From a virus, in the IMG/VR virus record IMGVR_UViG_3300025030_000086, positions 1 to 64,000 of that record: a DNA stretch of 64,000 nt; one strand, given 5' to 3'. Below, one piece after another: positions 34,971-53,471 of this stretch (the first letter of the stretch is position 1; every line of letters starts with the position of its first letter). Under the pieces are notes generated by a model that was given only the letters and a program-made list of their open reading frames with translations, was not told the origin of the DNA and searched no databases. The position numbers and the translations under genes are program-made.

Positions 34971-35280
34971 ATAAAAAATGTTACAAATTGAAACAAAAAC
35001 AATATATTGTGTTGCAAAAATGATACATACAAGATATAGTCATACCATATATAGTATGTTACGAAAAAGTAACACAACATATAGTCATACCATATATAGT
35101 GTTGTAAAAATGATACACCACAAATGGATATATGAGGAAGTCTCAAAACTGCAAAAATGAGCTACCTACTTCAGATACCAAAATTGAGATACCAATTTAG
35201 GATGAGCTACCTACTTCAGATACCAATTTTAATAAAAATATTTGACAATTAATAAAATTAAGATATACTGATAATTAGAA
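34971..35280. other. Repeat-rich intergenic region, candidate replication origin
   Basis: Non-coding apart from short chance frames. It holds a duplicated segment (ATAGTCATACCATATATAGT at about 35037 and 35080), a TGTTAC/GTAACA hairpin, and two GAGCTACCTACTTCAGATAC blocks (35159, 35204) with AGATACCAATTT. Together with the upstream arrays this makes about 540 bp of direct and inverted repeats between a terminator and a promoter. Confidence 0.45.
35242..35269 (+). promoter_or_regulatory. TTGACA-N16-TATACT promoter
   Basis: TTGACA 35242-35247, TATACT 35264-35269, followed by GATAATTAG. First member of the uniform promoter family of the 35-46 kb region. Confidence 0.75.
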
Positions 35281-35305
35281 TATAATAATAATAGGAGATA
35301 TCAGC

Positions 35306-35632
35306 ATGAAAAATCTTACAAAGAAAACCACAAAAGAACATTATGAAAAGTTTAGAGATATGGCAATTGGAGCAGAGATAACATTAAAAAGATTGCCAAA
35401 ACCTTTGGGTTATTCTGTAGAAGAGTTGAGAAAACTATATATAGAAGATAATAATCTAAACAATATACCATTAATTGAATTGGACAGTTTTTACTTGTGT
35501 TTACCATCATATACAAGGAAAATTATAACTAATATGGCAGATAATTGTTGCGTATACAAACATTTATTAATTTATGAAGTTTTAGGAGCTACACCTATTT
35601 TTACAGATATCCCCCTTAATTTGAGGGATTAA
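35306..35632 (+). CDS. Protein of unknown function
   Basis: 108 residues, first gene after the repeat region and its promoter; AGGAGATATC precedes the ATG. Basic N-terminus (KNLTKKTTKEHYEKF) and helical body. A gene in this place might act on the origin or be an early regulator, but no DNA-binding motif is visible. Confidence 0.5.
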   Translation: MKNLTKKTTKEHYEKFRDMAIGAEITLKRLPKPLGYSVEELRKLYIEDNNLNNIPLIELDSFYLCLPSYTRKIITNMADNCCVYKHLLIYEVLGATPIFTDIPLNLRD

Positions 35633-35637
35633 AATAT

Positions 35638-35665
35638 TTGACAATTAATAAAATTCATATATACT
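35638..35665 (+). promoter_or_regulatory. TTGACA-N16-TATACT promoter
   Basis: TTGACA 35638-35643, TATACT 35660-35665, then AATAATAAAGGAG, which includes the SD for the next gene. Confidence 0.75.
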
Positions 35666-35686
35666 AATAATAAAGGAGAACATAAA

Positions 35687-36253
35687 ATGGAAACAATAAG
35701 AGAAGAGATTTATAAAAATTATACTATAAAGATTGTAGTAGATGATAGGCCCCTTGATCCTATAGAAGAGTTTGATAGTTTTGGAAAGATGGTATGTTTC
35801 CATAAGTGGTATAGTTTAGGTCATAAGCATAATCTTAGAAGTGGTGATTTTGATTCTTTGGAAGATGTTAAAAATTATTTAATAAAAGAGGAGAAAGCCT
35901 ATATTATCCTTCCCCTTTATTTATACGATCATTCAGGAATTACAATAAGCACAACCCCCTTTAATTGTATGTTTGACAGTGGACAGATAGGTTTTATTTA
36001 TGCCACAAAAGAACAGATATTAAAGGAATATGGGGTTAAAAGGATAACCCCTAAAATCAGAAAGAAAGTGGAAAAACTTCTCATAGCTGAAGTTGACACT
36101 TATGACAAATATTTAACAGGGGAAGTCTACGGTTTCCAGATATTGAAGGATGGGGATATTGAAGATAGTTGTTACGGATATTATGACACCCCTAAAAATA
36201 TTATGTCTGAATGTAAGTTGAGAATAGATGAATATGAGGAACAATTTATTTAA
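35687..36253 (+). CDS. Conserved hypothetical protein of phages and plasmids
   Basis: 188 residues. DDRPLDPIEEFDSFGKMVCFHKWYSLG, YIILPLYLYDHSGITISTTPF, DSGQIGFIYATKEQILKEYG and YDKYLTGEVYGF form a conserved pattern seen in many mobile-element proteins of unknown function. Conserved acidic and aromatic residues suggest an enzyme or binding protein. Good SD (AAAGGAGAACA). Confidence 0.6.
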   Translation: METIREEIYKNYTIKIVVDDRPLDPIEEFDSFGKMVCFHKWYSLGHKHNLRSGDFDSLEDVKNYLIKEEKAYIILPLYLYDHSGITISTTPFNCMFDSGQIGFIYATKEQILKEYGVKRITPKIRKKVEKLLIAEVDTYDKYLTGEVYGFQILKDGDIEDSCYGYYDTPKNIMSECKLRIDEYEEQFI

Positions 36254-36269
36254 AAAAGGAGAACTATAA

Positions 36270-36452
36270 ATGAAAACATTTTCTATCGAAAAGCAAAATG
36301 AGTTAGGTAAAGAGATTGCTTTAATTCTCTGCTTGAAGAAAAATAAAAATGAAAAATATGTCACAATGTGGGGAGAGAAAACGGCAATTGGTTTATTAAA
36401 TTTAGTTTGCAGAATTGTTAAAAGTATAGAAATTATGGGGGGAGAACTATAA
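36270..36452 (+). CDS. Small conserved hypothetical protein
   Basis: 60 residues with KYVTMWGEKTAIGLLNLVCRIV, a pattern (Y.T.WG.KT..GL) found in small phage proteins. SD AAAAGGAGAAC. It directly precedes the ComM-like gene, and its last codons carry that gene's SD, so they may function together. Confidence 0.55.
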   Translation: MKTFSIEKQNELGKEIALILCLKKNKNEKYVTMWGEKTAIGLLNLVCRIVKSIEIMGGEL

Positions 36453-37076
36453 ATGAAAACAAGTCTATATGAAAGGAAAATTGCATATAATAATATAAAA
36501 GGCAATGAACTTTTAAAAAGGGCCATAGAAGTATCTTTAACTGGACAGCATACCATAACTGTTATTGGCAATGTTGATAATGGAAAAGAATATTTAGATA
36601 TTGTATTTAAGTCAAGAACAGAATATTGTGGAGAAGACCCCATATTTAATGAAAATTTATTTACTTTTGTACAACCTTGTTTTTGCGGTAATTTTGGTGA
36701 TGAGGGTTGTGGTTGTTCAGTAGAAGAGATTATATTACATAAAAGATCAAAGGAATATATAAATGCTATGAAAAGTCAAATAATTGTTAAATTAGAAAGA
36801 CCCCTATTTAATGAGATTGTTAGTGTATTAACAGGAGAATCTTTCCAAAACGTTGTGGACAGGATATATACATTTAATAGGTTAAAAACAATTGAAGGAA
36901 CTGATCAAGACGCAATGGAATTTTTAAAAACTGCATATAATAAATTGTTGTTTACAGGTAATCAAATAAATAGAGTTTTGGCAGTTTCAAGAACAATTGC
37001 AATAATGGATAATTCTGGTAGAGTTAAAGCTCATCATATAGCAGAAGCTATACAATATCAAGCATTAGATTATTAA
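36453..37076 (+). CDS. Miniature ComM/YifB-like (Mg-chelatase family) protein with altered Walker A
   Basis: 207 residues against about 500 in ComM/YifB. The N-terminus IKGNELLKRAIEVSLTGQHT is the family's VKGQ..AKRA.EIAA.G.H segment, but the P-loop reads GNVDNGKEY rather than GPPGxGKT. The region carrying Walker B is deleted. It rejoins at CFCGNFGDEGCGCSVEEI (the family's CPCG..GD....C.C) and ends with the C-terminal domain (NRVLAVSRTIAIMDNSGRVK, then HHIAEAIQYQALDY). ComM is a branch-migration helicase in transformation. This form likely cannot hydrolyse ATP and could bind or poison a host homologue. Recombination role is inferred. Confidence 0.75.
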   Translation: MKTSLYERKIAYNNIKGNELLKRAIEVSLTGQHTITVIGNVDNGKEYLDIVFKSRTEYCGEDPIFNENLFTFVQPCFCGNFGDEGCGCSVEEIILHKRSKEYINAMKSQIIVKLERPLFNEIVSVLTGESFQNVVDRIYTFNRLKTIEGTDQDAMEFLKTAYNKLLFTGNQINRVLAVSRTIAIMDNSGRVKAHHIAEAIQYQALDY

Positions 37077-37093
37077 GAGGAGGTTAACTAAAA

Positions 37094-37258
37094 ATGAATA
37101 TTTGTACAAATAATAAACATGGTGAAATAGTTTACGATAGTGGTTATAGGTATTGCCCCGCTTGTGAAAGAATAGAAAAATTGTTAAGTGATATAAAGGA
37201 TGCAGAAATGGAACTAAAAAATTTAATAGAAAAAGAGGGGGGGTTTGAAAATGAATAA
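37094..37258 (+). CDS. Small zinc-hook-like protein
   Basis: 54 residues: CTNNKHGE...YCPACERIEKLLSDIKDAEM. A CxxC pair followed by a coiled coil. The end overlaps the next start. SD GAGGAGG. Unknown. Confidence 0.5.
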   Translation: MNICTNNKHGEIVYDSGYRYCPACERIEKLLSDIKDAEMELKNLIEKEGGFENE

Positions 37259-37784
37259 GAAATTAAGTGATGCAGTAATAACAGAATTGTCATTTTTAAC
37301 AAGTAAAGAAATGAGAAATATTTTACAGAAGTTTGCTGATAATTTTGACAATTCTCATTTTGAAATGTTACGACACATTGCAAAGACCTACACTGATGAA
37401 CAAATAACCCCCTTGCTACCTACACCCCAAAAAGTTAAATCAAAGGATAAACGGACAAGGGAAGAAAAATTGGAAGAGTTAAAGGGGTATTATGTCAAAG
37501 AAAATATAGATGAAACAAGAGTAACTACAAATGATATACCTATTTTAAAAAGAGGTAGATCAAAAAGCAAGGATGGTACTTTGAAAGATAGAGTATTTGA
37601 ATTATTGGATATGAATTTGAGAACGGAGGAGCATGCTGATAATGTAGATACTAATTTAACTTATGATAATATTCTAAAGTCCGGTATACTGAATATTGCA
37701 GAAAATACTTATAAGGTAATTTTATCAGCATGGAGGAAAGAAAAAGGGATTAAGGTAAGAAGAGGAAGACCTTCTAAAAATTAA
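37251..37784 (+). CDS. DNA-binding-like protein with AT-hook
   Basis: 177 residues from ATG 37251, supported by GAGGGGGGG. A helical N-terminus, a basic linker (KSKDKRTREEKLEEL), a helical domain (LTYDNILKSGILNIAENTYKV) that could be HTH-like, and a C-terminal VRRGRPSKN, an AT-hook-type RGRP motif. Suits minor-groove binding in AT-rich DNA. Possibly a regulator; a promoter follows it. Confidence 0.5.
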   Translation: MNKKLSDAVITELSFLTSKEMRNILQKFADNFDNSHFEMLRHIAKTYTDEQITPLLPTPQKVKSKDKRTREEKLEELKGYYVKENIDETRVTTNDIPILKRGRSKSKDGTLKDRVFELLDMNLRTEEHADNVDTNLTYDNILKSGILNIAENTYKVILSAWRKEKGIKVRRGRPSKN

Positions 37785-37797
37785 TATACTTTAATTA

Positions 37798-37825
37798 TTG
37801 ACATTACTCAAAATAGTAGTATACT
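37798..37825 (+). promoter_or_regulatory. TTGACA-N16-TATACT promoter
   Basis: TTGACA 37798-37803, TATACT 37820-37825, then AATAATTAAAGGGGG. Spacer AATAGTAG immediately before the -10 is shared with the 42537 and 45831 promoters. Confidence 0.8.
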
Positions 37826-37848
37826 AATAATTAAAGGGGGATTATAAA

Positions 37849-38010
37849 ATGGAAAGATACTTAGAAAATGGAGATATGGTATTTGCAACAGGTGTTTTTT
37901 TGAGATACTTTAATGGAAAATTTGAAGTGTCAAGTTTTAAAGATGATACTTATTTTGACGGTAACATTGTTGAAGATATTGAAAATAAACCTTATACAGA
38001 AGAGGAATAA
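37849..38010 (+). CDS. Small acidic protein, unknown
   Basis: 53 residues (MERYLENGDMVFATGVFLRY...), beta-rich with an acidic tail. First gene behind the 37798 promoter. Unknown. Confidence 0.5.
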   Translation: MERYLENGDMVFATGVFLRYFNGKFEVSSFKDDTYFDGNIVEDIENKPYTEEE

Positions 38011-38021
38011 AGGGGGATTAT

Positions 38022-38171
38022 ATGCTTTATTATGGTATTATAATTGGTTCATTTATCATTTTTTATGCAGTTTTTATTTATAGTTTATGCAAAATTTCAA
38101 AAGATTGTGATATGAGGGCAGATAAATTATTTAAAGAAATGAGGATGAATGAAAACAAAAGTGATTTATAG
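38022..38171 (+). CDS. Membrane microprotein
   Basis: 49 residues with one N-terminal membrane helix (YYGIIIGSFIIFYAVFIY) and a charged tail. SD AGGGGGA. Overlaps the next gene. Confidence 0.5.
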   Translation: MLYYGIIIGSFIIFYAVFIYSLCKISKDCDMRADKLFKEMRMNENKSDL

Positions 38172-38427
38172 GAAATTTAAAACAACTGAAAGTATTGTTG
38201 CAATTTTTCCAGAATTGGGATACCCTGGATTTACTTCTAAAAAAGGTCTTATAATGGATTATATGTATTTTGGCCAACACGGAGAATGTATTTATGACAC
38301 CATTATAAAAATGACTATAAAAGCGTCTCCTAAAAATTATGAGGTATTGGAAGCACAATTGAGAGATTTAGGATATGATTTAGAAATTACTACACATAAG
38401 GGGTATCAAAAATTATTGACAAAGTAA
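38149..38427 (+). CDS. Conserved phage/plasmid hypothetical protein
   Basis: 92 residues. VIYRKFKTTESIVAIFPELG, MDYMYFGQHGECIYD and YEVLEAQLRDLGYDLEI match a widespread small family of mobile elements (RKFK..I.A.FPE...HVGQHG). Function unknown. Confidence 0.65.
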   Translation: MKTKVIYRKFKTTESIVAIFPELGYPGFTSKKGLIMDYMYFGQHGECIYDTIIKMTIKASPKNYEVLEAQLRDLGYDLEITTHKGYQKLLTK

Positions 38428-38447
38428 TAATCATAGGAGATTATGAA

Positions 38448-38591
38448 ATGTTTTATAAAAGTATAGGATTGTCAAAAGTCTTATTAAGACATAATGAAAA
38501 CTATATTACCCCATTTCAGTCCATTGCAGAAGAGGAGATACTTGATAGATATTGGTTCAATAGGTTTAGTTATGAAAGTTTCAAGGCATGA
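38448..38591 (+). CDS. 47-residue ORF
   Basis: MFYKSIGLSKVLLRHNENYI...; SD TAGGAGA; stop overlaps the next ATG. Unknown. Confidence 0.45.
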   Translation: MFYKSIGLSKVLLRHNENYITPFQSIAEEEILDRYWFNRFSYESFKA

Positions 38592-38740
38592 AAACATGGT
38601 TTGGTGTAGAGTTTAAAGGTTTTTATGTTGGTAAAGTCTATTGTAATAAGCAAGACCTTATTAATGAATTCAATAAACAATTCATGTATGAGATACAAGG
38701 GAATTTGTTTAAGGTTTTTGGAAAAATTGGAAAAAGATGA
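38588..38740 (+). CDS. 50-residue ORF
   Basis: MKTWFGVEFKGFYVGKVYCN...; basic, beta-like. Coupled to both neighbours by ATGA overlaps, including the helicase gene. Unknown. Confidence 0.5.
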   Translation: MKTWFGVEFKGFYVGKVYCNKQDLINEFNKQFMYEIQGNLFKVFGKIGKR

Positions 38741-40425
38741 AAACAATCCATATTAAAGATAATGTATTAATAATAAAGATACCGTATGATATTAATCTTG
38801 TATCATTAATCAAGACTTTCTTTTCCGGTAGGTCATGGGATAGCAATTTAAAAGTCTGGAAGTGCCCTGTAAATGAAAAGAATTTAATAGCTACCTACTC
38901 CATGATAGAAAATCATGACTTTACTGTATTTCCTGAAATGATGATTGAACTCGAAAAATATAAAGGACAATTTGAAATACAGAAGGTTGAAAATGAAAAG
39001 AAGATAGCAGCCTCAAAAGCTATAGATGCAAATATTGAGATACCTAATTTGAAGGGAGAACTCTTCCCGTTTCAAAAAGCAGGAGTGCAATTCATAGAAA
39101 ATACCAATGGTAAAACCTTAATAGCTGATGAAATGGGGTTAGGGAAGACCTTGCAATCAATAGCTTATTGCCAATTACATGCAGAAAAAAGACCTATTTT
39201 AGTTATTTGTCCAGCAACATTAAAGTTGAATTGGCAAAGAGAATTTAGAAAATGGACAAATATAAAAAGCTATGTTATAAATTCGCAAGATCTCAAATAT
39301 CAGCTACCTATCTATGAAGCATACATTATTAATTATGATATAGTGGGGAAAATGGAAACATTGCTGAATAAGATGAAATTTCAAGTAATGATATTGGATG
39401 AAGCACATTATTTGAAAAACCCAAAAGCATTACGGTCAAAAGCAATAAATGGATTAAATAAGAATATACCCCATATTTTGGCATTAACTGGTACACCAAT
39501 ACTTAATAGACCTGTTGAAATATTTAATATTTTAAAGATGTTAAGTCCTCAAAATTTTGGCAATTATTTTGATTTTGTGAAAAGATATTGTGGAGCTACC
39601 TATGGAAAATGGGGTCTGGATGTATCAGGAGCTACCAATATTCAAGAATTAAGTGATAAATTACGAGCAACAGTAATGATCAGAAGGGAAAAAAAGGATG
39701 TATTGGCAGAATTACCAGACAAGACAAGGGTAGTAGTCCCTCAAATATGTGATTTAAAAGCATACAAAAAAGTAGAGGATGATTTAATAAATTACTTAAT
39801 TGAATCAAAGAATAAGTCAAAACTTGCAGCGGAAAAAATTAGTCAAGTAGAACAATTGGCAAAAGTTGAATATGCAAAACAGGAAGCGGTTAAAGCAAAA
39901 CTCCCCCTATTTATTGAATGGAGTAAAGATTTTATTGAGGAAAATGGTAAATTAGTAATTTTTGCTCATCATAAAGAATTTGTTGAAAAGTTAATGTTTG
40001 AACTGAAGGACTATAATCCGGTTAAAATAGTGGGTGGTATGGAAATTGAGGATAAACAATCCTCAATAGATGCTTTCCAAAATAATAAAGAATGTAAAGT
40101 AATTATTTGTAGTCTAAAAGCCGCTGGTGTTGGGATAACTTTAGTTGCAAGTAGTTATGTAGCATTTTTAGAGTTAGGATGGACACCCGGTGAACATGAT
40201 CAGGCTGAAGATAGACTACACCGGATAGGGCAGAAAGATAATGTTACTTGTTATTATTTTTTGGCAGAAAATACTATTGAGGAAACAATTTACGATCTAC
40301 TTCAGAAAAAAAGAGATATTTTTCAAAAACTAATGCAAGATCAACATACAATTATAGGAACTCTTGATAATAATATTCTGAATGATTTAACAAATAAAAT
40401 AGTAAATAAAAATGAAGTTAATTAG
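38737..40425 (+). CDS. SNF2-family DNA helicase/translocase
   Basis: 562 residues. A small N-terminal domain (1-100) with FFSGRSWDSNLKVWKCPV precedes the helicase core: motif I ADEMGLGKTLQS (about 129), II ILDEAHYLKN (about 220), III LALTGTPILN, and in the second lobe VIICSLKAAGVGITL and motif VI QAEDRLHRIGQ. The N-terminal wrap resembles HARP/SMARCAL1-like proteins. It should translocate on duplex or forked DNA, aiding replication restart. The C-terminal residues (KNEVN) overlap the start of a homing endonuclease gene. Confidence 0.92.
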   Translation: MKTIHIKDNVLIIKIPYDINLVSLIKTFFSGRSWDSNLKVWKCPVNEKNLIATYSMIENHDFTVFPEMMIELEKYKGQFEIQKVENEKKIAASKAIDANIEIPNLKGELFPFQKAGVQFIENTNGKTLIADEMGLGKTLQSIAYCQLHAEKRPILVICPATLKLNWQREFRKWTNIKSYVINSQDLKYQLPIYEAYIINYDIVGKMETLLNKMKFQVMILDEAHYLKNPKALRSKAINGLNKNIPHILALTGTPILNRPVEIFNILKMLSPQNFGNYFDFVKRYCGATYGKWGLDVSGATNIQELSDKLRATVMIRREKKDVLAELPDKTRVVVPQICDLKAYKKVEDDLINYLIESKNKSKLAAEKISQVEQLAKVEYAKQEAVKAKLPLFIEWSKDFIEENGKLVIFAHHKEFVEKLMFELKDYNPVKIVGGMEIEDKQSSIDAFQNNKECKVIICSLKAAGVGITLVASSYVAFLELGWTPGEHDQAEDRLHRIGQKDNVTCYYFLAENTIEETIYDLLQKKRDIFQKLMQDQHTIIGTLDNNILNDLTNKIVNKNEVN

Positions 40426-40981
40426 AAAATTGGGGACAAGAATAAGTAAAAGTGGTCGGTTAGTAAGTTATGGTATATATCTTTGTCCATTTCCAGAATG
40501 TTTAGCAGAAGTTGAAAGACCTTTGGGTAATGGGGAAAGAAAAAAGTCTTGTGGGTGTAGAAGAAAAAAGGGGAATAGCTATACAAGATTATATAAAATT
40601 TGGACAGGTGTTAAAAATAGATGTTTTAATTCCAACAATCAAGCATATTTAGACTATGGTGGAAGAGGAATAACAATATGTCCAGAATGGACAAATGATT
40701 ATACTACTTTCAGAGATTGGGCATTAAATAATGGTTATCAAGAAAACTTAGTTATTGATAGGATTAATCCTGATGGTAATTATGAACCCTCTAATTGTAG
40801 ATGGTTAACAATATTAGAAAGTTTGAGAAATAAGACAAATACAATAACTATGGAAATAGCTAATGAAATTAGAGATTTGTATAAAACAAAAAATTTTACT
40901 CAACAAGAAATAGCTGATAAATTTAATGTAAGTCAAGAAACAGTGTCTTTAATTATAAATAATAAGCAATGGATAAAATAA
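40412..40981 (+). CDS. Homing endonuclease-like protein (zinc ribbon, YGGRGI body, HTH)
   Basis: 189 residues with all three modules: zinc ribbon (CPFPECLAEVER...KKSCGC), YGGRGITICPEW...VIDRINPDGNYEPSNCRW body, and HTH (NEIRDLYKTKNFTQQEIAD). The ATG lies 14 bases inside the SNF2 gene, and the shared bases AATGAAGTTAATTAG end that protein. It is followed directly by ATG of the next gene (TAAATG). Best-preserved member of the family. Confidence 0.77.
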   Translation: MKLIRKLGTRISKSGRLVSYGIYLCPFPECLAEVERPLGNGERKKSCGCRRKKGNSYTRLYKIWTGVKNRCFNSNNQAYLDYGGRGITICPEWTNDYTTFRDWALNNGYQENLVIDRINPDGNYEPSNCRWLTILESLRNKTNTITMEIANEIRDLYKTKNFTQQEIADKFNVSQETVSLIINNKQWIK

Positions 40982-41476
40982 ATGACAATTAATAAATTAA
41001 TAAATAATATATTCAGGGATAGGAAAAGGGTAGCAAAGAAGATTAAAAATCACAAAAGTGAGCTACCTATTTTTGAAAAAAATGTGAAGAGGATGTTCAA
41101 AACTATAAAATACACAAAGTCAATTGATACTATGATAAAAAACTTCGATAATATTAAGCAAGAATTTCAAAACGTGATGAGCTACCTACCCCCTGATATA
41201 GAATTGGAATTGAATGGGCAGGTAATAAAAGATATTAATAGTATTGATACTATTAGAGATACCTATATTAAAGATTTTATAAATGAAAGAATAGACATGG
41301 AGTTAGAAAAGGAAAAAATAGTAACTTCCATATTTTTAAAAGAAAATTTAATAAAACGTGCTTTAAATAGAGCATTGATAGCATTTACATATTTTCCAAA
41401 TGATGCAGAATTTGTTTGTAAAATTGCGGAGTTAGAGGAAATGTTATTAAATTGTTATAATAAGGAGAACAAATAA
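40982..41476 (+). CDS. Helical protein, unknown
   Basis: 164 residues, Lys/Ile/Glu-rich and mostly helical. Two GAGCTACCTA motifs lie inside the gene in different reading frames (SELPIF at 41060; MSYLPP at 41179), so they are not conserved for their protein meaning. Sits directly downstream of an inserted endonuclease gene and presumably belonged to the SNF2 operon. Confidence 0.5.
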   Translation: MTINKLINNIFRDRKRVAKKIKNHKSELPIFEKNVKRMFKTIKYTKSIDTMIKNFDNIKQEFQNVMSYLPPDIELELNGQVIKDINSIDTIRDTYIKDFINERIDMELEKEKIVTSIFLKENLIKRALNRALIAFTYFPNDAEFVCKIAELEEMLLNCYNKENK

Positions 41477-41697
41477 TGAAGAAAAAAGGAAAAATATTTT
41501 TAAAGATATTTGATACAACAATTGATTTGTACAAAGAAATTGAGTTAGATGCAGATTATATAAGATTTTATACACATGAAAATGATTATATAGATATTAA
41601 ATTTAAAGGTTTTGATTTATCTCTTAGAGGAATAGGGCAATTAAAAGTATTCCCCAATTCCTCAAATTCTATCATCATAGAACAGGAAGAACCATAA
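41476..41697 (+). CDS. Small beta-rich protein, unknown
   Basis: 73 residues; TAATG overlaps at both ends. Regular strand pattern (IFLKIFDTTIDLYKEIELD, FKGFDLSLRGIGQ). Unknown. Confidence 0.5.
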   Translation: MKKKGKIFLKIFDTTIDLYKEIELDADYIRFYTHENDYIDIKFKGFDLSLRGIGQLKVFPNSSNSIIIEQEEP

Positions 41698-41861
41698 TGA
41701 GTAAAGAATTAGAACAAGCCATTGAATTACATACAAAACTGGATAAAAATTGGGGATTAGAATCACCCAATAATTCCTGGCCCCTTGATTTAATTATTTA
41801 TTATAATAATAGAAAGGAGAAAGAAAATGAAAATTCATGTGGATCTGAAAAAGGGGATTGA
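41697..41861 (+). CDS. Small protein, paralogue of the 47455 ORF
   Basis: 54 residues. ELEQAIELHTKLDKNWG...SWPLDLIIYY matches ELKQAIEFHLKMDKQSG...AWPPWLLGIY at 47455, both followed by a GAAAGGAGA-type site for the next gene. Unknown domain. Confidence 0.55.
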   Translation: MSKELEQAIELHTKLDKNWGLESPNNSWPLDLIIYYNNRKEKENENSCGSEKGD

Positions 41862-42081
41862 GAATATTTCAATAATTATAATGATACTTGATACAGAGGA
41901 TAAAACATTAGCAAATAAATTATTTAGATCCCCTTTAGATTATCCCTCAAATAAAGATTATGTCTATGTAGAAAATGTGGGTAATTGTGATTATATAGAA
42001 AACATTTTTAGAACTGAAGAAGGGGCTAAGAGTTGGGCAGAATTTGAAATAAAATGTTTAAAAAATAAATTATGCATATAA
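41827..42081 (+). CDS. Small protein, unknown
   Basis: 84 residues; SD AAAGGAGAAAGA. Contains DYVYVENVGNCDYIENIFRT. Unknown. Confidence 0.5.
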   Translation: MKIHVDLKKGIENISIIIMILDTEDKTLANKLFRSPLDYPSNKDYVYVENVGNCDYIENIFRTEEGAKSWAEFEIKCLKNKLCI

Positions 42082-42105
42082 CAATTAATTAAAGGGGTTT
42101 CAATA

Positions 42106-42540: not shown

Positions 42541-42564
42541 CATTACCAAAAATAGTAGTATACT
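42537..42564 (+). promoter_or_regulatory. TTGACA-N16-TATACT promoter
   Basis: TTGACA 42537-42542 overlaps the stop of the preceding gene; TATACT 42559-42564 is followed by AATAATTAAAGGAG. Nearly identical to those at 37798 and 45831. Confidence 0.8.
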
Positions 42565-42582
42565 AATAATTAAAGGAGATAT

Positions 42583-43685: not shown

Positions 43686-43693
43686 GGGGTTTA

Positions 43694-45107: not shown

Positions 45108-45111
45108 ATAT

Positions 45112-45830: not shown

Positions 45831-45858
45831 TTGACATATCCAAAAATAGTAGTATACT
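45831..45858 (+). promoter_or_regulatory. TTGACA-N16-TATACT promoter
   Basis: TTGACA 45831-45836, TATACT 45853-45858, followed by AATAATTAAATG. The 100 bases before the next gene hold no good ORF; a start-less frame (FCGSPGSGSELVFNLKG...) may be a gene remnant. Confidence 0.75.
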
Positions 45859-45964
45859 AATAATTAAATGAATTTTTCAAATTTTGTGGTTCCCCAGGTT
45901 CAGGTAGTGAGCTTGTTTTTAATTTAAAAGGTAAATTTTTAAGTCAATCATTTTATGAATAATT

Positions 45965-46414: not shown

Positions 46415-46424
46415 GGAGAAATAG

Positions 46425-46685
46425 ATGTCATTTGAAATGGAAAAAATTAGAGGCTTAAAAGTTATAGCTTTGAAAGGTGGGGGATACAGGGATAAAAGGT
46501 TTAAAGATATTGAAGTTAAATATATTTTGTTTTCAGATAAAAGAACTTATATTGAATTAGAAGAACAGGATTATTATACATTTCATGATTTTTCATCTTA
46601 TGCAAGATATGTTAATATTCATAGTAATGAAGAGGAATGGAAAAGAATTTTTAAACTTGATGATGCTAATGAGGATATTTGTTAG
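46425..46685 (+). CDS. Small protein, unknown
   Basis: 86 residues; SD AAGGAGAAATAG. Strand-rich N-terminal half with GGGYRDKRFKDIEVKYILF. Unknown. Confidence 0.5.
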   Translation: MSFEMEKIRGLKVIALKGGGYRDKRFKDIEVKYILFSDKRTYIELEEQDYYTFHDFSSYARYVNIHSNEEEWKRIFKLDDANEDIC

Positions 46686-46697
46686 GGGGTTACTTAA

Positions 46698-46892
46698 ATG
46701 AAAAATGTAAATCTTGTATTAAGTGTTATTTTAAATTATGAAACTAAAAAAGGTAATAAAGAAGTATGCCATGAGATAGAGGTCTATCTTGGTAATGTAC
46801 CTGAAACATACATAGATGTGGAAGAAGTGGTAAAACTTATTAAACAAAATATAAAAATAAATGTAAAGGAAGTTGAAATTTATGGAGATTAA
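46698..46892 (+). CDS. Small protein, unknown
   Basis: 64 residues; SD AGGGGGTTAC. Beta/alpha pattern ending VEEVVKLIKQNIKINVKEVE. Unknown. Confidence 0.5.
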   Translation: MKNVNLVLSVILNYETKKGNKEVCHEIEVYLGNVPETYIDVEEVVKLIKQNIKINVKEVEIYGD

Positions 46893-46894
46893 AG

Positions 46895-47458
46895 ATGTCA
46901 AAGAATGAGCGGGACAAATATTTATTGAAAGAGGAGTATAAGAAATTTATTGAAAATACTCCTGAACAATATAAACTATTTTGGAAAATTGTGTTTCATT
47001 CTGGTCTTAGGATATCTGAAGGATTGAATCTAACAGTTAATGACATATTATGGAATGAGAATAAATTATTAATTGCTACATTGAAGCGTAAAGGTCATCC
47101 CATCATTCCTATAATAATTTCAAAAGACTTAATAGATGAATTGAAAATATATATAAAAGAATCTGGAAGAATGTGGAAGAATCCGGCAATTAATGGAAGA
47201 ATCTGGAAGTATAGTAGACAATATGCATGGAGAATATTCAAGTCTATTTGCATAAAAGCGGAATTAAACCCAAAGTATAGCCCTCATGCTCTACGTCATT
47301 CTCATGGTGTTATGATAGCAGATATAACAAACGGTAATATGGTTGAGATTAAAAATAGATTAAGACATTCATCTATAAAATCAACTGAATTCTATGTTCA
47401 TTGTTCTGAAGCCAAACAAAAGGAATTATCCAATAAAATAGAGGAGTATATGAAATGA
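46895..47458 (+). CDS. Minimal tyrosine recombinase
   Basis: 187 residues, essentially only the catalytic domain. HSGLRISEGLNL carries Arg I, LKRKGHPI the beta-hairpin Lys, HALRHSHGV the His-x-x-Arg box, RLRHSSIKST the second His region, and EFYVH the nucleophilic Tyr. The N-terminal core-binding domain of typical integrases is largely absent. It may resolve genome multimers, invert DNA or be a relic integrase. No attachment site or repressor is seen beside it. Confidence 0.83.
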   Translation: MSKNERDKYLLKEEYKKFIENTPEQYKLFWKIVFHSGLRISEGLNLTVNDILWNENKLLIATLKRKGHPIIPIIISKDLIDELKIYIKESGRMWKNPAINGRIWKYSRQYAWRIFKSICIKAELNPKYSPHALRHSHGVMIADITNGNMVEIKNRLRHSSIKSTEFYVHCSEAKQKELSNKIEEYMK

Positions 47459-47625
47459 AAAATCAATATAAAGCTGAATTAAAACAAGCTATAGAATTTC
47501 ACTTAAAAATGGATAAACAATCGGGAAGAGCAGATAAAAAAGCATGGCCCCCTTGGTTATTAGGAATTTATGAAGAAGGGAATTATAATGAAGATAATAT
47601 AAATAATAAAAAGGAGATATTATAA
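47455..47625 (+). CDS. Small protein, paralogue of the 41697 ORF
   Basis: 56 residues: ELKQAIEFHLKMDKQSGRAD followed by WPPWLLGIYEEG. ATGA overlap with the recombinase gene; its end contains AAAGGAGATA for the next gene. Unknown. Confidence 0.55.
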   Translation: MKNQYKAELKQAIEFHLKMDKQSGRADKKAWPPWLLGIYEEGNYNEDNINNKKEIL

Positions 47626-48023
47626 TGTGTTTGTATAATGTGGATAATTCAATAAAGGACAAAGATTTTGGTTACAAAATAATAAGCAAAGATGGTAGAG
47701 CAAGGTTTTTAAAGAGTAAAAAGTTAACTGAAGGAAAATGGTTAAATGAATATAATTATAGACAAGATTATTATAAAAAAGAAAACTACTTGTTTTTAGA
47801 ATCAGAGTCATATTATGATAAATTAGCATATTTGATGGGGTGGCATGTTTTTTACACCAAAAAAGAGGCAATGAGTTATAATAAATATATATTACGTGAC
47901 CCTACTATTAAAATTGTAAAAGTTGGGATTAAAAATATAGTGGCAAAGGGTTATCAATGTACGCAACATTCATATAGGACAATTGTTTGTAAATACATAA
48001 AAATAGAAAAGGAGATGAAATGA
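47625..48023 (+). CDS. Conserved phage hypothetical protein
   Basis: 132 residues. MCLYNVDNSIKDKDFGYKII, KWLNEYNYRQDYY, GWHVFYTKKEAMSY and a VKVGIKNIVAKGYQ strand match a small phage family (CLYNV...GYKV...GFHIF.TK.DA...V.VRYR.VVA.G.Q). Its role is unknown; it sits at the end of the plus-strand block. Confidence 0.6.
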   Translation: MCLYNVDNSIKDKDFGYKIISKDGRARFLKSKKLTEGKWLNEYNYRQDYYKKENYLFLESESYYDKLAYLMGWHVFYTKKEAMSYNKYILRDPTIKIVKVGIKNIVAKGYQCTQHSYRTIVCKYIKIEKEMK

Positions 48024-48229
48024 TAATAAGAACAGATGAAGGTGACAGGATAATATTAAATGAGGAAGTAAATCTTTACAGTTTAGATGAACGTATTAAA
48101 ACGACAAACAGTGTAAAAATTAATGGTAAAACCATGACCGTTGATGAGTTTAAGAAAGGAAAAATAGATCCAAAAAAAGGTCATTGGGGTCGAAAAGCTA
48201 TGAATGAGATGGATAATGATTTAATCTAA
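48020..48229 (+). CDS. Small protein, unknown
   Basis: 69 residues; VKINGKTMTVDEFKKGKI shares a motif with the 32056 ORF. SD AAAGGAGATG. Last plus-strand gene; converges on the minus-strand block with an 9-base overlap. Confidence 0.5.
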   Translation: MIIRTDEGDRIILNEEVNLYSLDERIKTTNSVKINGKTMTVDEFKKGKIDPKKGHWGRKAMNEMDNDLI

Positions 48230-48418
48230 ATCAGCATCTATCACAAGATTTGCCCATAAGCAAAGGTCTTTTATTAATCTATTTCTTTTATCATATGGTA
48301 TTTCGTAGTCATTAAATATCAATATTAATTCTTCCTGAAGTACATCATTTATTTTAGATTTTATGGCTTGTTTAATTTCATTTCTTTTTATATTATCCAT
48401 TTTATCTCCATTTACCAC
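48221..48418 (-). CDS. Small helical protein, unknown
   Basis: 65 residues, helical (IKRNEIKQAIKSKINDVLQE). Ribosome site GGAGATAAA. It is the last minus-strand gene and overlaps the plus-strand gene end to end. Confidence 0.5.
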   Translation of the reverse strand: MVNGDKMDNIKRNEIKQAIKSKINDVLQEELILIFNDYEIPYDKRNRLIKDLCLWANLVIDADLD

Positions 48419-48558
48419 AATATATGGTATGTTACAATATGAAACACAAGATGTTGTGTACTTTACTATTTATATGATTATAAGTAAATATTTTAAAACC
48501 ACAAAAGTGAGCTACCTATTTCAATATAAAAATCCAGATACCAATTTAATGATGGAAT
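48419..48558. promoter_or_regulatory. Intergenic region with GAGCTACCTA motif
   Basis: No gene. It has an ACACAA/TTGTGT hairpin near 48443-48460 and the block CACAAAAGTGAGCTACCTAT (48500-48519), of which 20 bases are also found inside the coding sequence at 41051. AGATACCAATTT follows, as in the 35.2 kb repeats. Confidence 0.5.
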
Positions 48559-48933
48559 TTAACCCTTACTCTTATTAACTGGAAAATTTAACCATCCATT
48601 TTTACTAAATATATTAAATAATGCCAATGCTAATATATTGATTGATTTCTCCTCATCATCACCCATAGATGAGAAAAGCCCCATTTCCAATTCACCATCA
48701 ACAGCATGTAAAATTTCATGGAGTAATGTAATAAAAACATCCTCCAATGGCTTATTTTTATAATATATTCTTATAGTCCTGTCCCAAGGATCGTGTTGAC
48801 CAACCAAACTTGCCCTTTTCTCCGCATCTACATCATTTGGTAGTTCATGATATGCAATTGTGTAAGGAATACCAAGAAGCTCAAAATTTGTTGGCAGTTC
48901 AGAAACTTTGTAATTTTTTCCACTTTTAAACAT
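48559..48933 (-). CDS. HExxH zinc metallopeptidase
   Basis: 124 residues. ITLLHEILHAVDGELE carries the HEILH zinc site with a downstream Glu; LPTNFELLGIPYTIAYHELP and DRTIRIYYK precede it, the layout of small phage/ICE metallopeptidases related to the ImmA/WLM group. A host or phage repressor is a conceivable substrate, but this is inference. No signal peptide, so cytoplasmic. Confidence 0.75.
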   Translation of the reverse strand: MFKSGKNYKVSELPTNFELLGIPYTIAYHELPNDVDAEKRASLVGQHDPWDRTIRIYYKNKPLEDVFITLLHEILHAVDGELEMGLFSSMGDDEEKSINILALALFNIFSKNGWLNFPVNKSKG

Positions 48934-49161
48934 TTAGATACCCCCCTTATTTTTTAAATTAGAGAATATTCCCCATAGAGAAAAAATAAAAAATATGAAG
49001 AAGAGAAAACTTTGTTGAATTTCCCCTATTTTATAATTATATATCATAAGAAATAAATCGGTAAATGACCATAGATAAAATCCCCATAATAATTTATTTT
49101 TAATAATACATATTTTACCAATTAAGGAAAGAACGATTATACCCCATAAGAAATATCCCAT
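48934..49161 (-). CDS. Small membrane protein, PnuC-like repeat
   Basis: 75 residues with three hydrophobic helices. The pattern LSLIGKICIIKNKLLWGFYLW...IYNYKIGEIQQSFLFFIFFIFSLWGIF resembles half-size PnuC-like proteins in phages. PnuC carries nicotinamide riboside; transport here is only a possibility. Confidence 0.45.
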   Translation of the reverse strand: MGYFLWGIIVLSLIGKICIIKNKLLWGFYLWSFTDLFLMIYNYKIGEIQQSFLFFIFFIFSLWGIFSNLKNKGGI

Positions 49162-49314
49162 TTAAATATCCCAATAAAAAGTTATATCAAAAAATAACCA
49201 TCCTAAATTATATACTCTGGAACAATCATGGTAAAAGGGAATTAAATACCATTTATGTAGTGGGAAAAATCCTATATTTAAAACAGGTCTGTAATATATT
49301 ACATTTTTTTTCAT
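49162..49314 (-). CDS. 50-residue ORF, unknown
   Basis: MKKNVIYYRPVLNIGFFPLH..., aromatic-rich (YNLGWLFFDITFYWDI). Start overlaps the SbcC C-terminal gene's stop (TAATG). Coupling supports it as real. Confidence 0.5.
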   Translation of the reverse strand: MKKNVIYYRPVLNIGFFPLHKWYLIPFYHDCSRVYNLGWLFFDITFYWDI

Positions 49315-49925
49315 TATGCTATCTCCTTTGTTTCTGAAAACTTCCCATTATGGGTAACAAAAAACACCTTATCAGCTTGTTCTGCTATTTCTGGTATTTG
49401 AGAAACTATTATAAATTGTATATTTAATTTTTTACTTAAATCTTTAATCATTTTCATAGCATTTTCTGTTTTACCATGCAAAAACCGCATGGGTTCATCC
49501 AAAATCAATGTGTTTGTTGATTTAGGATTTTCTATGCTCCAAAGGACTACTCGTAATGCAAAGGAGGCAACATCCAGTATACCACCCCCACAACTATCTT
49601 TTGGATCGGCTTCTTCCCCCCTTAATTTAAGACTAATTTTAGCTTCGGGTTTGTTACGTTTAATGTCAAAATCTATAATAAATTGGTAGTCCTCCTCAAA
49701 AACTGCTTGTAATGCAGTAGTAACCATAGATTCTATGTAATCTTTTAAATAGGATTGGGTATGCTTTCCAGCTTCGGCTACTATAGCTCTTGCTTTTTGC
49801 AAATTTTCATTATATTCTTTTAATGAAACTTGCTCTTTTTCTTTTATTTCTAAAGAAGCAAGAGTTAGTTGACATTCAGTTTTGAAAGCAATAAACTTTG
49901 TTTTAAGTTGCTCTACTTTTTCCAT
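49314..49925 (-). CDS. SbcC/Rad50-like ATPase, C-terminal half
   Basis: 203 residues. A coiled coil (1-65) leads into the C-terminal ATPase lobe: signature DSCGGGILDVASFALRVVLW (about 110-129), Walker B with D-loop TLILDEPMRFLHG and the switch region FIIVSQIPEIAEQADKVFFVTH. There is no Walker A, which lies in the separate gene 52413-53471. The two halves plus the coiled-coil ORF at 50476 would make one gp46-like subunit. It is separated from the rest by an inserted HNH-repeat gene and small ORFs. Confidence 0.82.
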   Translation of the reverse strand: MEKVEQLKTKFIAFKTECQLTLASLEIKEKEQVSLKEYNENLQKARAIVAEAGKHTQSYLKDYIESMVTTALQAVFEEDYQFIIDFDIKRNKPEAKISLKLRGEEADPKDSCGGGILDVASFALRVVLWSIENPKSTNTLILDEPMRFLHGKTENAMKMIKDLSKKLNIQFIIVSQIPEIAEQADKVFFVTHNGKFSETKEIA

Positions 49926-50294
49926 TCACCAACTCCAATCATCTTCTTGATTTTTAAGATTTTTACATTTCTTACATATTCTGTTGATTTTTGGATCTAT
50001 GCTTTCAAATTTTTTTAAACAACATAAACATATAACAACTGTTAATAATATCTTATCTTTTGATTTTCTTCCCTGTGTTATTGGAAAAGATACTTTTTTC
50101 TTTATATTTAATCCAGCTTGCTCCAAGCAAGCATTCCAACTTAAATTAAAATTTTTGTTTATATGACTATAACTACAAACTTTATTACAATTATAGTCAA
50201 ATTCATTTCTTGTCAAAAAGCAAGTTCCTGCAATATCTCTCAAATTTTCTATAAAATCTGAAAATTTGATTACTGATGTACCATGCAGTTTCAT
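49926..50294 (-). CDS. Homing-endonuclease-associated repeat protein
   Basis: 122 residues from ATG 50294 (MKLHGTSVIKF). A longer frame to 50339 overlaps the previous gene without a site. FIENLRDIAGTCFLTRNEFD, then SHINKNFNLSWNACLEQAGL matches the homing-endonuclease-associated (HNH) repeat, a DNA-binding unit. The C-terminus CLCCLKKFES...NRICKKCKN is a zinc finger. No nuclease motif is clear, so this may be a DNA-binding relic or a compact enzyme. It splits the SbcC region. Confidence 0.68.
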   Translation of the reverse strand: MKLHGTSVIKFSDFIENLRDIAGTCFLTRNEFDYNCNKVCSYSHINKNFNLSWNACLEQAGLNIKKKVSFPITQGRKSKDKILLTVVICLCCLKKFESIDPKINRICKKCKNLKNQEDDWSW

Positions 50295-50296
50295 AT

Positions 50297-50467
50297 TTAT
50301 TTTGATACTTCCCAATAAACTAAATAACAATTTTGGCACATATGAACTTCTACCAAATCAGAGCTATACCAAGTATCTGTGATAGTGATGAGTGGTCTTT
50401 TGTATAATGCTTCCAATAACAAAGGCTTGTGTCTATTAAATAGAATACATAATAATTTTTTAAACAT
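50297..50467 (-). CDS. Small CxxC protein, unknown
   Basis: 56 residues: basic N-terminus (MFKKLLCILFNRHKPLLLEA) and C-terminal VHMCQNCYLVYWE. SD GGAGG before the ATG. Stop lies three bases before the next gene's start. Confidence 0.5.
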   Translation of the reverse strand: MFKKLLCILFNRHKPLLLEALYKRPLITITDTWYSSDLVEVHMCQNCYLVYWEVSK

Positions 50468-50475
50468 AAAACCTC

Positions 50476-50730
50476 CTATATAAATCCAAATTTTTCTTTT
50501 AATTCTGTGTATTTACTTTCTATTGCAATTCCCAATGTTTCAACTTCCTTAGTTAATTTTTGAACCGTCTGTTCAGCTTCTATAAAATTATCTAAATTAT
50601 AATCTTTTTTTAGCGTGGATAATAAAGCCTTTTTTTGCCCCTTACTTTCAGCCAAATCTTCTCGTGCCTTCTCAATCTTTAATTTAATCGCTTTAAGAGT
50701 TTTTTCCACTTCTTTTGTGTCTATAGGCAT
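50476..50730 (-). CDS. Coiled-coil protein, probable SbcC middle segment
   Basis: 84 residues, an uninterrupted coiled coil (EVEKTLKAIKLKIEKAREDL...). Its place between the N- and C-terminal SbcC halves suggests it is a detached coiled-coil arm, or an independent partner. SD GAAAGGATATGTAAC. Confidence 0.55.
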   Translation of the reverse strand: MPIDTKEVEKTLKAIKLKIEKAREDLAESKGQKKALLSTLKKDYNLDNFIEAEQTVQKLTKEVETLGIAIESKYTELKEKFGFI

Positions 50731-50731
50731 G

Positions 50732-50827
50732 TTACATATCCTTTCTGAAGAAAAATAATGTTGTAAATATTATCAAAAATATAAAGACGTATGTGATTAT
50801 AATAGCAATTAATTCATTATCTGTCAT
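50732..50827 (-). CDS. Membrane microprotein
   Basis: 31 residues with one helix (LIAIIITYVFIFLIIFTTLFF) and a basic end. Overlaps the upstream gene. Unknown. Confidence 0.5.
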   Translation of the reverse strand: MTDNELIAIIITYVFIFLIIFTTLFFFRKDM

Positions 50828-51281
50828 CATCTCTATTCCTTTCCATATATTCTTGTGGGATAATAATCATAGATTTTTTATTTATTATTTTTACAGATTC
50901 TCTATGACCCAAAAAACAACTAAGGAATAAACCTATTTTTAATTTTGTATCTTCAATATCTATATTCAAGCAATACTTTGTATTCAATTCTTCTAAAAAA
51001 TGTTCAATTTTTCTTGCAGTATTTGTCACTGTGTCAAGCAACTGTGGGTTATAATATATAGAAAAACCAAACATTTTTTCATCCATATGGTAAGTTTCCA
51101 TAAATGTTGGATTTTGCACAGAATGAATAAAAATATGAGGCATTACTATATAATATTTAATAAGAATAGGAAATACTACTTTATTGGGATTAAATTCTTC
51201 TTCTTGTGAATAATCATTTTCTATAGTTATTTTTTCTTTATAATCTACAAGATATGGTTGATTGGTTATTGATGAATTCAT
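50817..51281 (-). CDS. Protein of unknown function between SbcD and SbcC parts
   Basis: 154 residues: acidic N-terminus, beta-like middle (VVFPILIKYYIVMPHIFIHS) and helix/strand C-terminal part. Start overlaps the SbcD-like stop by one base. No family recognised. Confidence 0.5.
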   Translation of the reverse strand: MNSSITNQPYLVDYKEKITIENDYSQEEEFNPNKVVFPILIKYYIVMPHIFIHSVQNPTFMETYHMDEKMFGFSIYYNPQLLDTVTNTARKIEHFLEELNTKYCLNIDIEDTKLKIGLFLSCFLGHRESVKIINKKSMIIIPQEYMERNRDDDR

Positions 51282-52210
51282 TATTTTTCAATCTCCTCAA
51301 ATGCCTTAATTATAATATTTTTAATATCATTTTCAGTTGATTTCATCATTAATTCAAGATTTTTTCTAAAATTTAAACTCTGTCCTATCTCATTGTTTTT
51401 TATACTATTTATAAATTCTTGCAATTTTTGATTCTCTTTTTTATCCACTCTTTCCAATGCCTCCGGCTTAAATACCTCATCAGCGGGTTTATGAATTATT
51501 GGTAAATTAATTAATTCATATGTTAAATCTTCATCATTTATTTCTAACATATATATATGAGGAATTAAATCAGATTCATTTAAGGTTTTTCTAACCAAAC
51601 AACCACAATTCACAATTGTTTGGTTTTTATATTTATAAAATACTGGATGATGCCAATCTCCACTTATAATTATATCATATGGATACTTTTTAGCAAGTTT
51701 ATCTGATTGCAGAAAGTCCTCCATTCCTTTCCATACAGGCTTATCCAATATAGTTTTATGAATTAATAATATATTGAAATTGTCTACATCTTCTATTATA
51801 GGAATTTCATCTCCATAATCACATCCATAAAGATCAATATTTCTACCAAAAGTTATACGTTTGAAGGTCTGCATATAGCCTAAAGATTCCATTAATTTCA
51901 AGGCTGTTCTATCTTTAGTCCTAAATCTTTGATCATGCTGTCCCCAAACGGTTAAGAATTGAATCTCATTATTATTGCCATTATTAATACTATATTTATT
52001 AAATAATTTTATATAATATTCCAATACGTCAAAAGACGGGCGGGGGTTATCGAAAACGTCCCCTGGGCACAGGATATATTCACATCTATTTTTTGAAGCT
52101 ATTTGAAATATCTGCTCAACCTTATTCAACTGAGTTTCAAAGAAATTATCTATCCTGTTTTCTGGATTAGAAGCTCTCAAATGTAAATCTCCGGTAATTA
52201 AAAATTTCAT
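51281..52210 (-). CDS. SbcD/Mre11-like nuclease (gp47-like)
   Basis: 309 residues. Metallophosphoesterase motifs in order: GDLHLRAS (about 7), PGDVFDNPRP (about 49), WGQHDQR (about 89), LLIHKT (about 148), SGDWHHP (about 184) and NCGCLVR. This is the nuclease subunit that, with the SbcC/Rad50-like ATPase encoded by 52413-53471 and 49314-49925, processes DNA ends for recombination-dependent replication. All metal ligands are present. Confidence 0.9.
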   Translation of the reverse strand: MKFLITGDLHLRASNPENRIDNFFETQLNKVEQIFQIASKNRCEYILCPGDVFDNPRPSFDVLEYYIKLFNKYSINNGNNNEIQFLTVWGQHDQRFRTKDRTALKLMESLGYMQTFKRITFGRNIDLYGCDYGDEIPIIEDVDNFNILLIHKTILDKPVWKGMEDFLQSDKLAKKYPYDIIISGDWHHPVFYKYKNQTIVNCGCLVRKTLNESDLIPHIYMLEINDEDLTYELINLPIIHKPADEVFKPEALERVDKKENQKLQEFINSIKNNEIGQSLNFRKNLELMMKSTENDIKNIIIKAFEEIEK

Positions 52211-52408
52211 TTATCTCATCCCCACATCAAAAGCTTGTATGGCCTTTTCCCAATCTAACTCACATTTTATTTCAGTCCATCCATTTGCTATTTTATAATC
52301 TTCAGCTATTTTGTTAGCCTCTTCTTTATTTTGAGCTATAATTTTAATAGTATTAATAAAATAAGTATTAATATAACCATCTGCTTTATAATATTTATAC
52401 TTCTCCAT
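52211..52408 (-). CDS. Small protein, unknown
   Basis: 65 residues from ATG 52408 with GAGGGGGGT upstream; the alternative GTG at 52429 lies in the preceding gene. YKYYKADGYINTYFINTIKIIAQNKEEA is a strand-helix pattern. Unknown. Confidence 0.5.
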   Translation of the reverse strand: MEKYKYYKADGYINTYFINTIKIIAQNKEEANKIAEDYKIANGWTEIKCELDWEKAIQAFDVGMR

Positions 52409-52412
52409 ATTG

Positions 52413-53471
52413 TTATACCCCCCTCTCACACAAAGGACATATACCTGCTTCTTCTAAGGTCTTCTTAAACTCTTTTTCCTCTTTTTCAATAAGTTTTTCC
52501 ATCTTTTTTATAGTTTCAAAATATACATCCCAACTCTGTTTTAAATTATTTATTTTATTTAGCACATCAGAAGTGGCTAAGTATTTTATAACATTACTCT
52601 CAAGCTCTGGCAAGCCCTCCCCCTGTTTTAAAATAGCCTCAGTTGCTTCAATATCAACATCCAATATGGATAAACTTATTAATATTTTTTCTAAATCTCT
52701 TATTAAAGCTAAATTCGTGTTATAATCCAACCATAAATACTCCAATACTTTAATTTCATCTTCAAGACCAACATATTTATTTTCTATGCTCTTTATAATA
52801 TTTTCTGTCCTAATTCCTTCCGATACTATGTAGGTTAATAATTTAACTTTATTTTCTAATATTTTAACTTTAGTATCATATTCTACTATTTTATTTACTA
52901 AATTCTCAATTAAATCATAATCTTTGAACTTTTCAAGGCTTGTATTCAATTTATCTAAATCTTGTTTTTTTATCTCAAGTTCTTTATTTGTAGATGTTAT
53001 TTTTGAAGATATGTTAGAAATCAAAGCGTCTATATCATCCAGCTTGACTATTTTATTAATTGTTCTGCCAACTTCTCCTGCACTATCCATCAAAAGGAAG
53101 TGTCTTTCAAACTGTGAGGCACAATTTATATCAGATATATTAATTGCAGAACTGATCTCTGAAGGAACATCATTGCCTATGGTATTAAATAATGAGCTAC
53201 CTATTTGATATGAATTTATAGAATTGTTTCTTTCTCTTACAATTTCAGTATCATTAATAATCAATGATACCTTGCAAGTTTCCTTTTTGTCACTAAAAGT
53301 GGATTTGAAAGCTAACCCTTGTGGTCTGTTAGTAATAATCCAATTCAAAGCTCTGAGAATAGCAGTTTTCCCATTATTGCTTTGACCAGATATTATATTT
53401 ATTCCAGAGGAAAATTTTAAATAGGAATCTTTATGGCTCTGAAAATTTTGGAGTTTAATGGATTGTATCAT
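52413..53471 (-). CDS. SbcC/Rad50-like ATPase, N-terminal half
   Basis: 352 residues. Starts MIQSIKLQNFQSHKDSYLKF, Walker A ISGQSNNGKTAILRALNW (about 28-45), then a Q-loop region and a long coiled coil (150-340). It ends with EEAGICPLCERGV, a CPLC half zinc hook exactly at the C-terminus. Walker B and the signature are encoded separately at 49314. The protein is therefore split at the hook, where the two arms of a normal SbcC meet. Confidence 0.87.
   Translation of the reverse strand: MIQSIKLQNFQSHKDSYLKFSSGINIISGQSNNGKTAILRALNWIITNRPQGLAFKSTFSDKKETCKVSLIINDTEIVRERNNSINSYQIGSSLFNTIGNDVPSEISSAINISDINCASQFERHFLLMDSAGEVGRTINKIVKLDDIDALISNISSKITSTNKELEIKKQDLDKLNTSLEKFKDYDLIENLVNKIVEYDTKVKILENKVKLLTYIVSEGIRTENIIKSIENKYVGLEDEIKVLEYLWLDYNTNLALIRDLEKILISLSILDVDIEATEAILKQGEGLPELESNVIKYLATSDVLNKINNLKQSWDVYFETIKKMEKLIEKEEKEFKKTLEEAGICPLCERGV

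What the first reader, a model, noticed from the sequence alone, without database searches (positions are those of the whole stretch)
35159..53203. Strand-biased GAGCTACCTA motif, independent of reading frame
The exact 10-mer occurs at 35159, 35204, 39593, 41060, 41179, 48509 and 53194, always on the plus strand, and the shorter GCTACCTA also at about 37411, 38889 and 39301. I saw no copy in the first 35 kb and none inverted. At about 30% GC fewer than one copy would be expected. It lies in intergenic DNA, in different frames of plus-strand genes and antisense in the minus-strand SbcC gene, so it is kept as DNA. The 41.05 and 48.50 kb copies share about 20 bases. It resembles an oriented Chi/KOPS-like or regulatory signal.
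Basis: seen in the sequence. Interest (0 to 1): 0.7.

Follow-up and report, generated by a model that had tools for sequence, protein, structure and literature searches.

The report
One-strand DNA motif in large phage
An uncultured, low-GC phage carries a ten-letter DNA word only on one strand, in and outside genes, far more often than chance, which points to a directional signal read by an unidentified phage or host protein.

Summary
GAGCTACCTA occurs exactly 7 times in the 73,157-bp phage record, all on + between 35.16 and 53.20 kb; 0.01-0.04 are expected, and it is the most over-represented dispersed 10-mer. Shuffling synonymous codons gives 0.03 copies in coding DNA against 4 real ones, so it is kept as DNA. 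At 35.16-35.23 kb it belongs to a head-to-tail array with a sister word, [CG]AGATACCAA, directly upstream of the first of five strong rightward promoters. A second A-B pair at 48.5 kb is conserved in a relative with the same 26-bp spacing. The relative has another exact copy inside sbcD, made by about 11 base changes in 15 nt between identical flanks, with the protein almost unchanged. Orientation follows the genome strand, not transcription: no flip past the convergent point near 48.2 kb. As yardsticks, Bxb1 stoperators flip with transcription, while single-strand-nick sites of phage tf do not. Chi/KOPS is unlikely: the motif is confined to about 18 kb and absent from about 100 kb of related contigs. 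I favour the site of a strand-directed phage protein, nick-site-like (0.35), over an operator/stoperator (0.3) or replication iteron (0.2). The protein is unidentified.

The parts
35159..35168 (+). site A (GAGCTACCTA), first unit of the intergenic array
35172..35181 (+). site B (CAGATACCAA), array unit, 13 bp after the first
35186..35195 (+). site B (GAGATACCAA), array unit
35204..35213 (+). site A (GAGCTACCTA), array unit
35217..35226 (+). site B (CAGATACCAA), last array unit
35242..35269 (+). sigma-70/A-type promoter TTGACA-16-TATACT directly downstream of the array, first of five near-identical rightward promoters (35242, 35638, 37798, 42537, 45831)
   Evidence: consensus match only
37415..37422 (+). 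8-mer core GCTACCTA inside gene 37251-37784
38888..38897 (+). TAGCTACCTA, one mismatch, inside SNF2 helicase gene
39037..39046 (+). GAGATACCTA, one mismatch, inside SNF2 helicase gene
39301..39310 (+). CAGCTACCTA, one mismatch, inside SNF2 helicase gene
39593..39602 (+). exact site A inside SNF2 helicase gene, codon position 2
39629..39638 (+). GAGCTACCAA, one mismatch, inside SNF2 helicase gene
41060..41069 (+). exact site A inside gene 40982-41476, codon position 1
41179..41188 (+). exact site A inside gene 40982-41476, codon position 3
41256..41265 (+). GAGATACCTA, one mismatch, inside gene 40982-41476
48509..48518 (+). exact site A, intergenic within the minus operon, upstream of minus gene 48221-48400; conserved as CAGCTACCTA in relative G009
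48535..48544 (+). site B (CAGATACCAA), 26 bp after the A site; same spacing in G009
53194..53203 (+). exact site A, antisense in the minus-strand sbcC-like gene; not kept in G009

Best explanation
The motif is the recognition site of a sequence-specific protein, probably phage-encoded, that reads an asymmetric site of about 10-13 bp and acts with fixed polarity on the phage DNA molecule. Shown by sequence: selection on DNA rather than protein, one-strand orientation that ignores transcription, an A/B array beside an early promoter, and a conserved A-B pair at 48.5 kb. Inferred: single copies scattered in genes are sites where the protein acts on one particular strand, most likely site-specific single-strand interruption (nicking) or a related strand-directed processing step, as at the top-strand nick sites of phages T5, phiKMV and tf; the array would be its main loading or autoregulation site. 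The protein is not identified. That it is a DNA recognition site under selection I hold at about 0.85; the strand-processing role at about 0.35.
For: Over-representation and strand exclusivity. Synonymous-codon null: 0.03 exact copies expected in + coding DNA, 4 in real genes (one search counts 5, one being in a spurious ORF). All PWM hits of score 12 or more in the record are on +. Orientation does not flip past the convergent point: window 48509 and 53194, and G009 1931/1957 and 5008, all +. In G009 sbcD the motif differs from the window sequence by about 11 changes in 5 codons (GGA CAG AGT TTA AAT versus GGT AGC TCA CTT GAC) between identical flanking codons, with only Q to S and N to D. 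Yardstick by the same script: tf nick sites 14 of 14 on the top strand, including 2 antisense in the leftward operon, and also the top 9/10-mer of that genome; Bxb1 stoperators 30 of 32 follow transcription.
Against: No nick can be seen from assembled sequence. Known nick sites do not form tandem arrays, and the A/B array beside a promoter looks more like an operator. The motif covers only about 18 kb. No nicking enzyme is tied to it, although the phage has many HNH genes. Solitary sites are not conserved in position in the one relative that covers them. Independent loci that break co-orientation with transcription are few (48.5 kb, 53.2 kb, G009 sbcD).
Confidence: 0.35

Rival explanations
1. 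Operator plus polar roadblock (stoperator-like): a phage regulator binds the array to control the first early promoter, and the solitary sites stop or slow rightward transcription, including read-through into the minus operon after 48.2 kb.
For: Array ends about 15 bp upstream of TTGACA at 35242; A-B pair beside the putative promoter of minus gene 48221-48400, conserved with 26-bp spacing; sites start at the first of five early promoters and lie mostly in the region they transcribe; no clear terminator was found at the convergent point; 13-bp head-to-tail spacing.
Against: Cluster A stoperators are oriented by transcription and flip at the switch (30 of 32 in Bxb1) and mostly lie between genes; here there is no flip and solitary sites are inside genes. 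No repressor gene found: HTH_3 hits are mostly tails of HNH endonucleases.
Confidence: 0.3
2. Replication (or partition) iterons: an initiator binds the array at 35.2 kb as origin, with a second cluster at 48.5 kb and satellite sites.
For: Direct repeats with 13-18 bp spacing in an AT-rich, repeat-rich 600-bp non-coding region; all sites lie to one side and point away from the array; the phage encodes PolA, DnaB-like helicase, primase, clamp and clamp loader.
Against: GC skew switches at about 10.7 and 48 kb with gene direction, not at 35.2 kb; no ParA in the record; no initiator recognised; solitary copies inside genes are unusual for iterons.
Confidence: 0.2
3. Chi- or KOPS-like octamer read by a translocating recombinase or motor.
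For: Short, asymmetric, oriented, frame-independent.
Against: Confined to 18 kb; absent from the other 55 kb of the record and from about 100 kb of related contigs; tandem array with a sister word.
Confidence: 0.05
4. Chance or coding artefact.
For: Sites at 39593 and 39629 both encode Gly-Ala-Thr.
Against: Dinucleotide, Markov and synonymous-codon nulls; antisense and intergenic copies; conserved 48.5 kb pair.
Confidence: 0.03

Closest known systems
Localized single-chain interruption (nick) sites of phages T5, phiKMV group and tf
   Same: Short asymmetric word over-represented and found on one strand only, also antisense in the convergent gene block; one-mismatch variants on the same strand; uneven distribution; mostly inside genes (PMC3517423).
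   Different: Nicks not testable here; different word; tandem A/B array beside a promoter; confined to 18 kb.
Stoperators of cluster A mycobacteriophages (L5, Bxb1, Trixie)
   Same: About 13-bp asymmetric dispersed sites plus sites at an early promoter (PMC6550527).
   Different: Stoperators flip with transcription and mostly lie between genes; here no flip, solitary sites inside genes, no repressor recognised.
Replication initiator iterons
   Same: Head-to-tail direct repeats in AT-rich non-coding DNA.
   Different: Many solitary copies in genes; no initiator recognised.
Chi and KOPS
   Same: Oriented, frame-independent octamer-like word.
   Different: Regional instead of genome-wide; tandem array.

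Membership tests
Phage single-chain interruption sites (T5/phiKMV/tf type) | Asymmetric consensus, all copies on one strand regardless of gene direction | tested here: met
   7 of 7 exact, 12 of 13 with one mismatch
Phage single-chain interruption sites (T5/phiKMV/tf type) | Ligatable single-strand break at the site in virion DNA | not testable with these tools
   needs virion DNA
Phage single-chain interruption sites (T5/phiKMV/tf type) | Solitary sites, not tandem arrays (a usual trait, not a strict definition) | tested here: not met
   five-unit array at 35.2 kb, pair at 48.5 kb; tf consensus sites have no neighbour within 60 bp
Cluster A stoperators | Orientation follows direction of transcription | tested here: not met
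   48509, 53194 and G009 5008 keep + orientation in minus operon; Bxb1 control flips
Cluster A stoperators | Cognate repressor gene | tested here: inconclusive
   none recognised by Pfam/PHROGs; record is a fragment
Chi / KOPS | Enriched and oriented genome-wide | tested here: not met
Replication iterons | Tandem direct repeats bound by an initiator at an origin | tested here: inconclusive
   repeats present, initiator and origin not shown; no skew switch at 35 kb

The most novel reading that the evidence does not exclude
A phage system in which one protein uses a promoter-side A/B array and strand-exclusive single sites embedded in coding DNA, coupling early gene control to polar or strand-specific processing of the genome.
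Probability: 0.2. Interest if true: 0.7.

Novelty: new variant of a known kind. Interest (0 to 1): 0.45.

Why it matters
The role of strand-exclusive phage sites (nicks of T5, phiKMV, tf) has been open for decades. A motif of that pattern, gained or lost inside a gene with the protein kept almost unchanged and tied to an early-promoter array, would give a natural comparison set and a way to find the protein. If it turns out to be an operator system, it is a non-mycobacterial relative in style of stoperators.

Tried and rejected
Array pattern scans of IMG/VR gave none or only chance hits in unrelated contigs. Queries for helicase, DUF932 and the gene next to the array found no close relative covering 35 kb; a PolA alignment found no close relative in bacterial genomes, only a 26% match. 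RNA structure of the array: no better than shuffles; no Rfam family there. No complementary word on the minus strand, so no base-pairing partner in the record. Single-sequence structure predictions of 35306-35632 and 37251-37784 were too poor to use (pLDDT about 40). The weak G009 site at 3391 was rejected as chance because the window ortholog lacks it. The word is not reported as a phage motif in the papers listed by the search (10 of 25 hits were listed).

Full report
What it is in. The window is 64 kb of a 73,157-bp IMG/VR phage record, 29% GC. It has terminase, portal, PolA, UvsX-like, SbcC/D-like, DnaB-like helicase, primase, clamp and clamp-loader genes. Related contigs run past both ends of the record, about 16 kb to the left (G004) and 13.6 kb to the right (G009), so the real genome is probably above 100 kb. 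Genes run right from about 11 to 48.2 kb and left on either side.

Observation. All seven exact copies were confirmed on + only, with none in the rest of the record. It is the strongest dispersed 10-mer; competing words come from paralogous HNH genes, tandem repeats or ribosome-binding sites. With one mismatch, 12 of 13 sites are on +. A synonymous-codon shuffle of the genes gives 0.03 exact copies on + against four in real genes (39593, 41060, 41179, 53194), and 0.17 copies of the 8-mer against about seven. The looser PWM set is weaker evidence: 10 seen against 2.6 expected on + coding DNA.

Anatomy. A sister word, [CG]AGATACCAA, accompanies the motif. At 35159-35226 the order is A-B-B-A-B with starts 13, 14, 18 and 13 bp apart, ending about 15 bp before TTGACA-16-TATACT, the first of five near-identical rightward promoters. 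At 48509/48535 an A-B pair is 26 bp apart. Exact B words occur nowhere else. Solitary A copies lie in gene bodies in all three frames, and at 53194 antisense in the sbcC-like gene. The 35.0-35.3 and 48.4-48.55 kb regions also share an ATACCATATAT-type element.

Comparison. Relative G009 is collinear from 47 to 72.5 kb at about 70-80% identity. Its orthologous 48.5 kb locus has CAGCTACCTA and CAACTACCAA, again 26 bp apart, although the DNA between has changed. The 53194 copy is absent there. An exact copy occurs at G009:5008 in sbcD, where the window has none: five consecutive codons differ at about 11 bases, flanked by identical codons, with two residues changed. This suggests that the word is gained or lost as a unit under DNA-level selection; one example cannot separate selection from a block replacement.

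Orientation. In both genomes every good site is on the same strand, also past the convergent point near 48.2 kb. With the same script, Bxb1 stoperators (consensus recalled from memory; 32 matches with up to one mismatch) flip with transcription in 30 of 32 cases, while the 14 tf nick sites do not flip; two of those lie antisense in the leftward operon. The k-mer statistic recovers the known motif as top word in both tf and Bxb1. It did not recover the phiKMV consensus, which has only three copies there. This favours a genome-polar function over a transcription-polar one, but only three independent loci carry that distinction.

Mechanism. Shown: a DNA-level, one-strand word with a promoter-side array and a conserved pair. 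Inferred: a polar DNA-binding protein. I rank strand-specific processing of the nick type first (0.35), regulator or roadblock second (0.30), replication or partition iterons third (0.20). Against the nick reading stand the arrays, the 18-kb confinement and the lack of any physical evidence. Against the roadblock reading stand the missing flip and missing repressor. Against iterons stand solitary intragenic sites and no skew switch at 35 kb.

Limits. No relative covering 34-47 kb was found, so conservation of the main array is untested. The binding protein is unknown. The host is unknown; a Firmicute-like host is only suggested by low GC and purine-rich ribosome-binding sites.

Noticed in passing
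window 34736-34970: Non-coding block with three 31-bp and three perfect 42-bp tandem repeats just upstream of the array; dyads at 35.04-35.12 kb partly resemble those at 48.42 kb.
   Followed up: partly
window 11112-11165: Tandem 7-bp repeat (TACTATA) next to a tRNA-Gln gene on the minus strand (11011-11085).
   Followed up: no
window 11221, 13371, 40412, 42106, 44280, 66.1 kb: Many paralogous HNH endonuclease genes, several with a C-terminal HTH, plus a second repeated family at about 3.99, 6.55, 68.0, 70.4 and 72.5 kb (NUMOD3/HNH at the last): heavily colonised by homing-type endonucleases.
   Followed up: partly
record 64075-64905 (L008:4075-4905) and window 9987-10643: A TET-associated glycosyltransferase (TAGT) and a DUF559/PvuRts1I-like nuclease domain suggest hypermodified DNA in this phage.
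   Followed up: no
window 17484-18935: DNA methyltransferase whose match to the family profile is much shorter than the protein span, as if it holds an insertion.
   Followed up: no
window 22005-23111: RNA ligase with PHA02142 OB-fold domain.
   Followed up: no
window 46895-47458: Tyrosine recombinase with only a catalytic domain (187 aa) in a phage that is probably over 100 kb; lysogeny unclear.
   Followed up: no
window 53194 and L037:5008: Both antisense copies are read in the same frame and encode Ile-Gly-Ser-Ser-Leu in SbcC-like and SbcD-like proteins.
   Followed up: partly
L050 (Bacillus phage vB_BcoS-136, 0-20 kb): TTGTCAACAG occurs 16 times on + only, in a region where annotated genes run on minus; may be its own promoter or control motif.
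   Followed up: no
L062 (phiKMV) 6314, 13986, 24128: The published phiKMV nick consensus coincides with the annotated phage-specific promoters.
   Followed up: no
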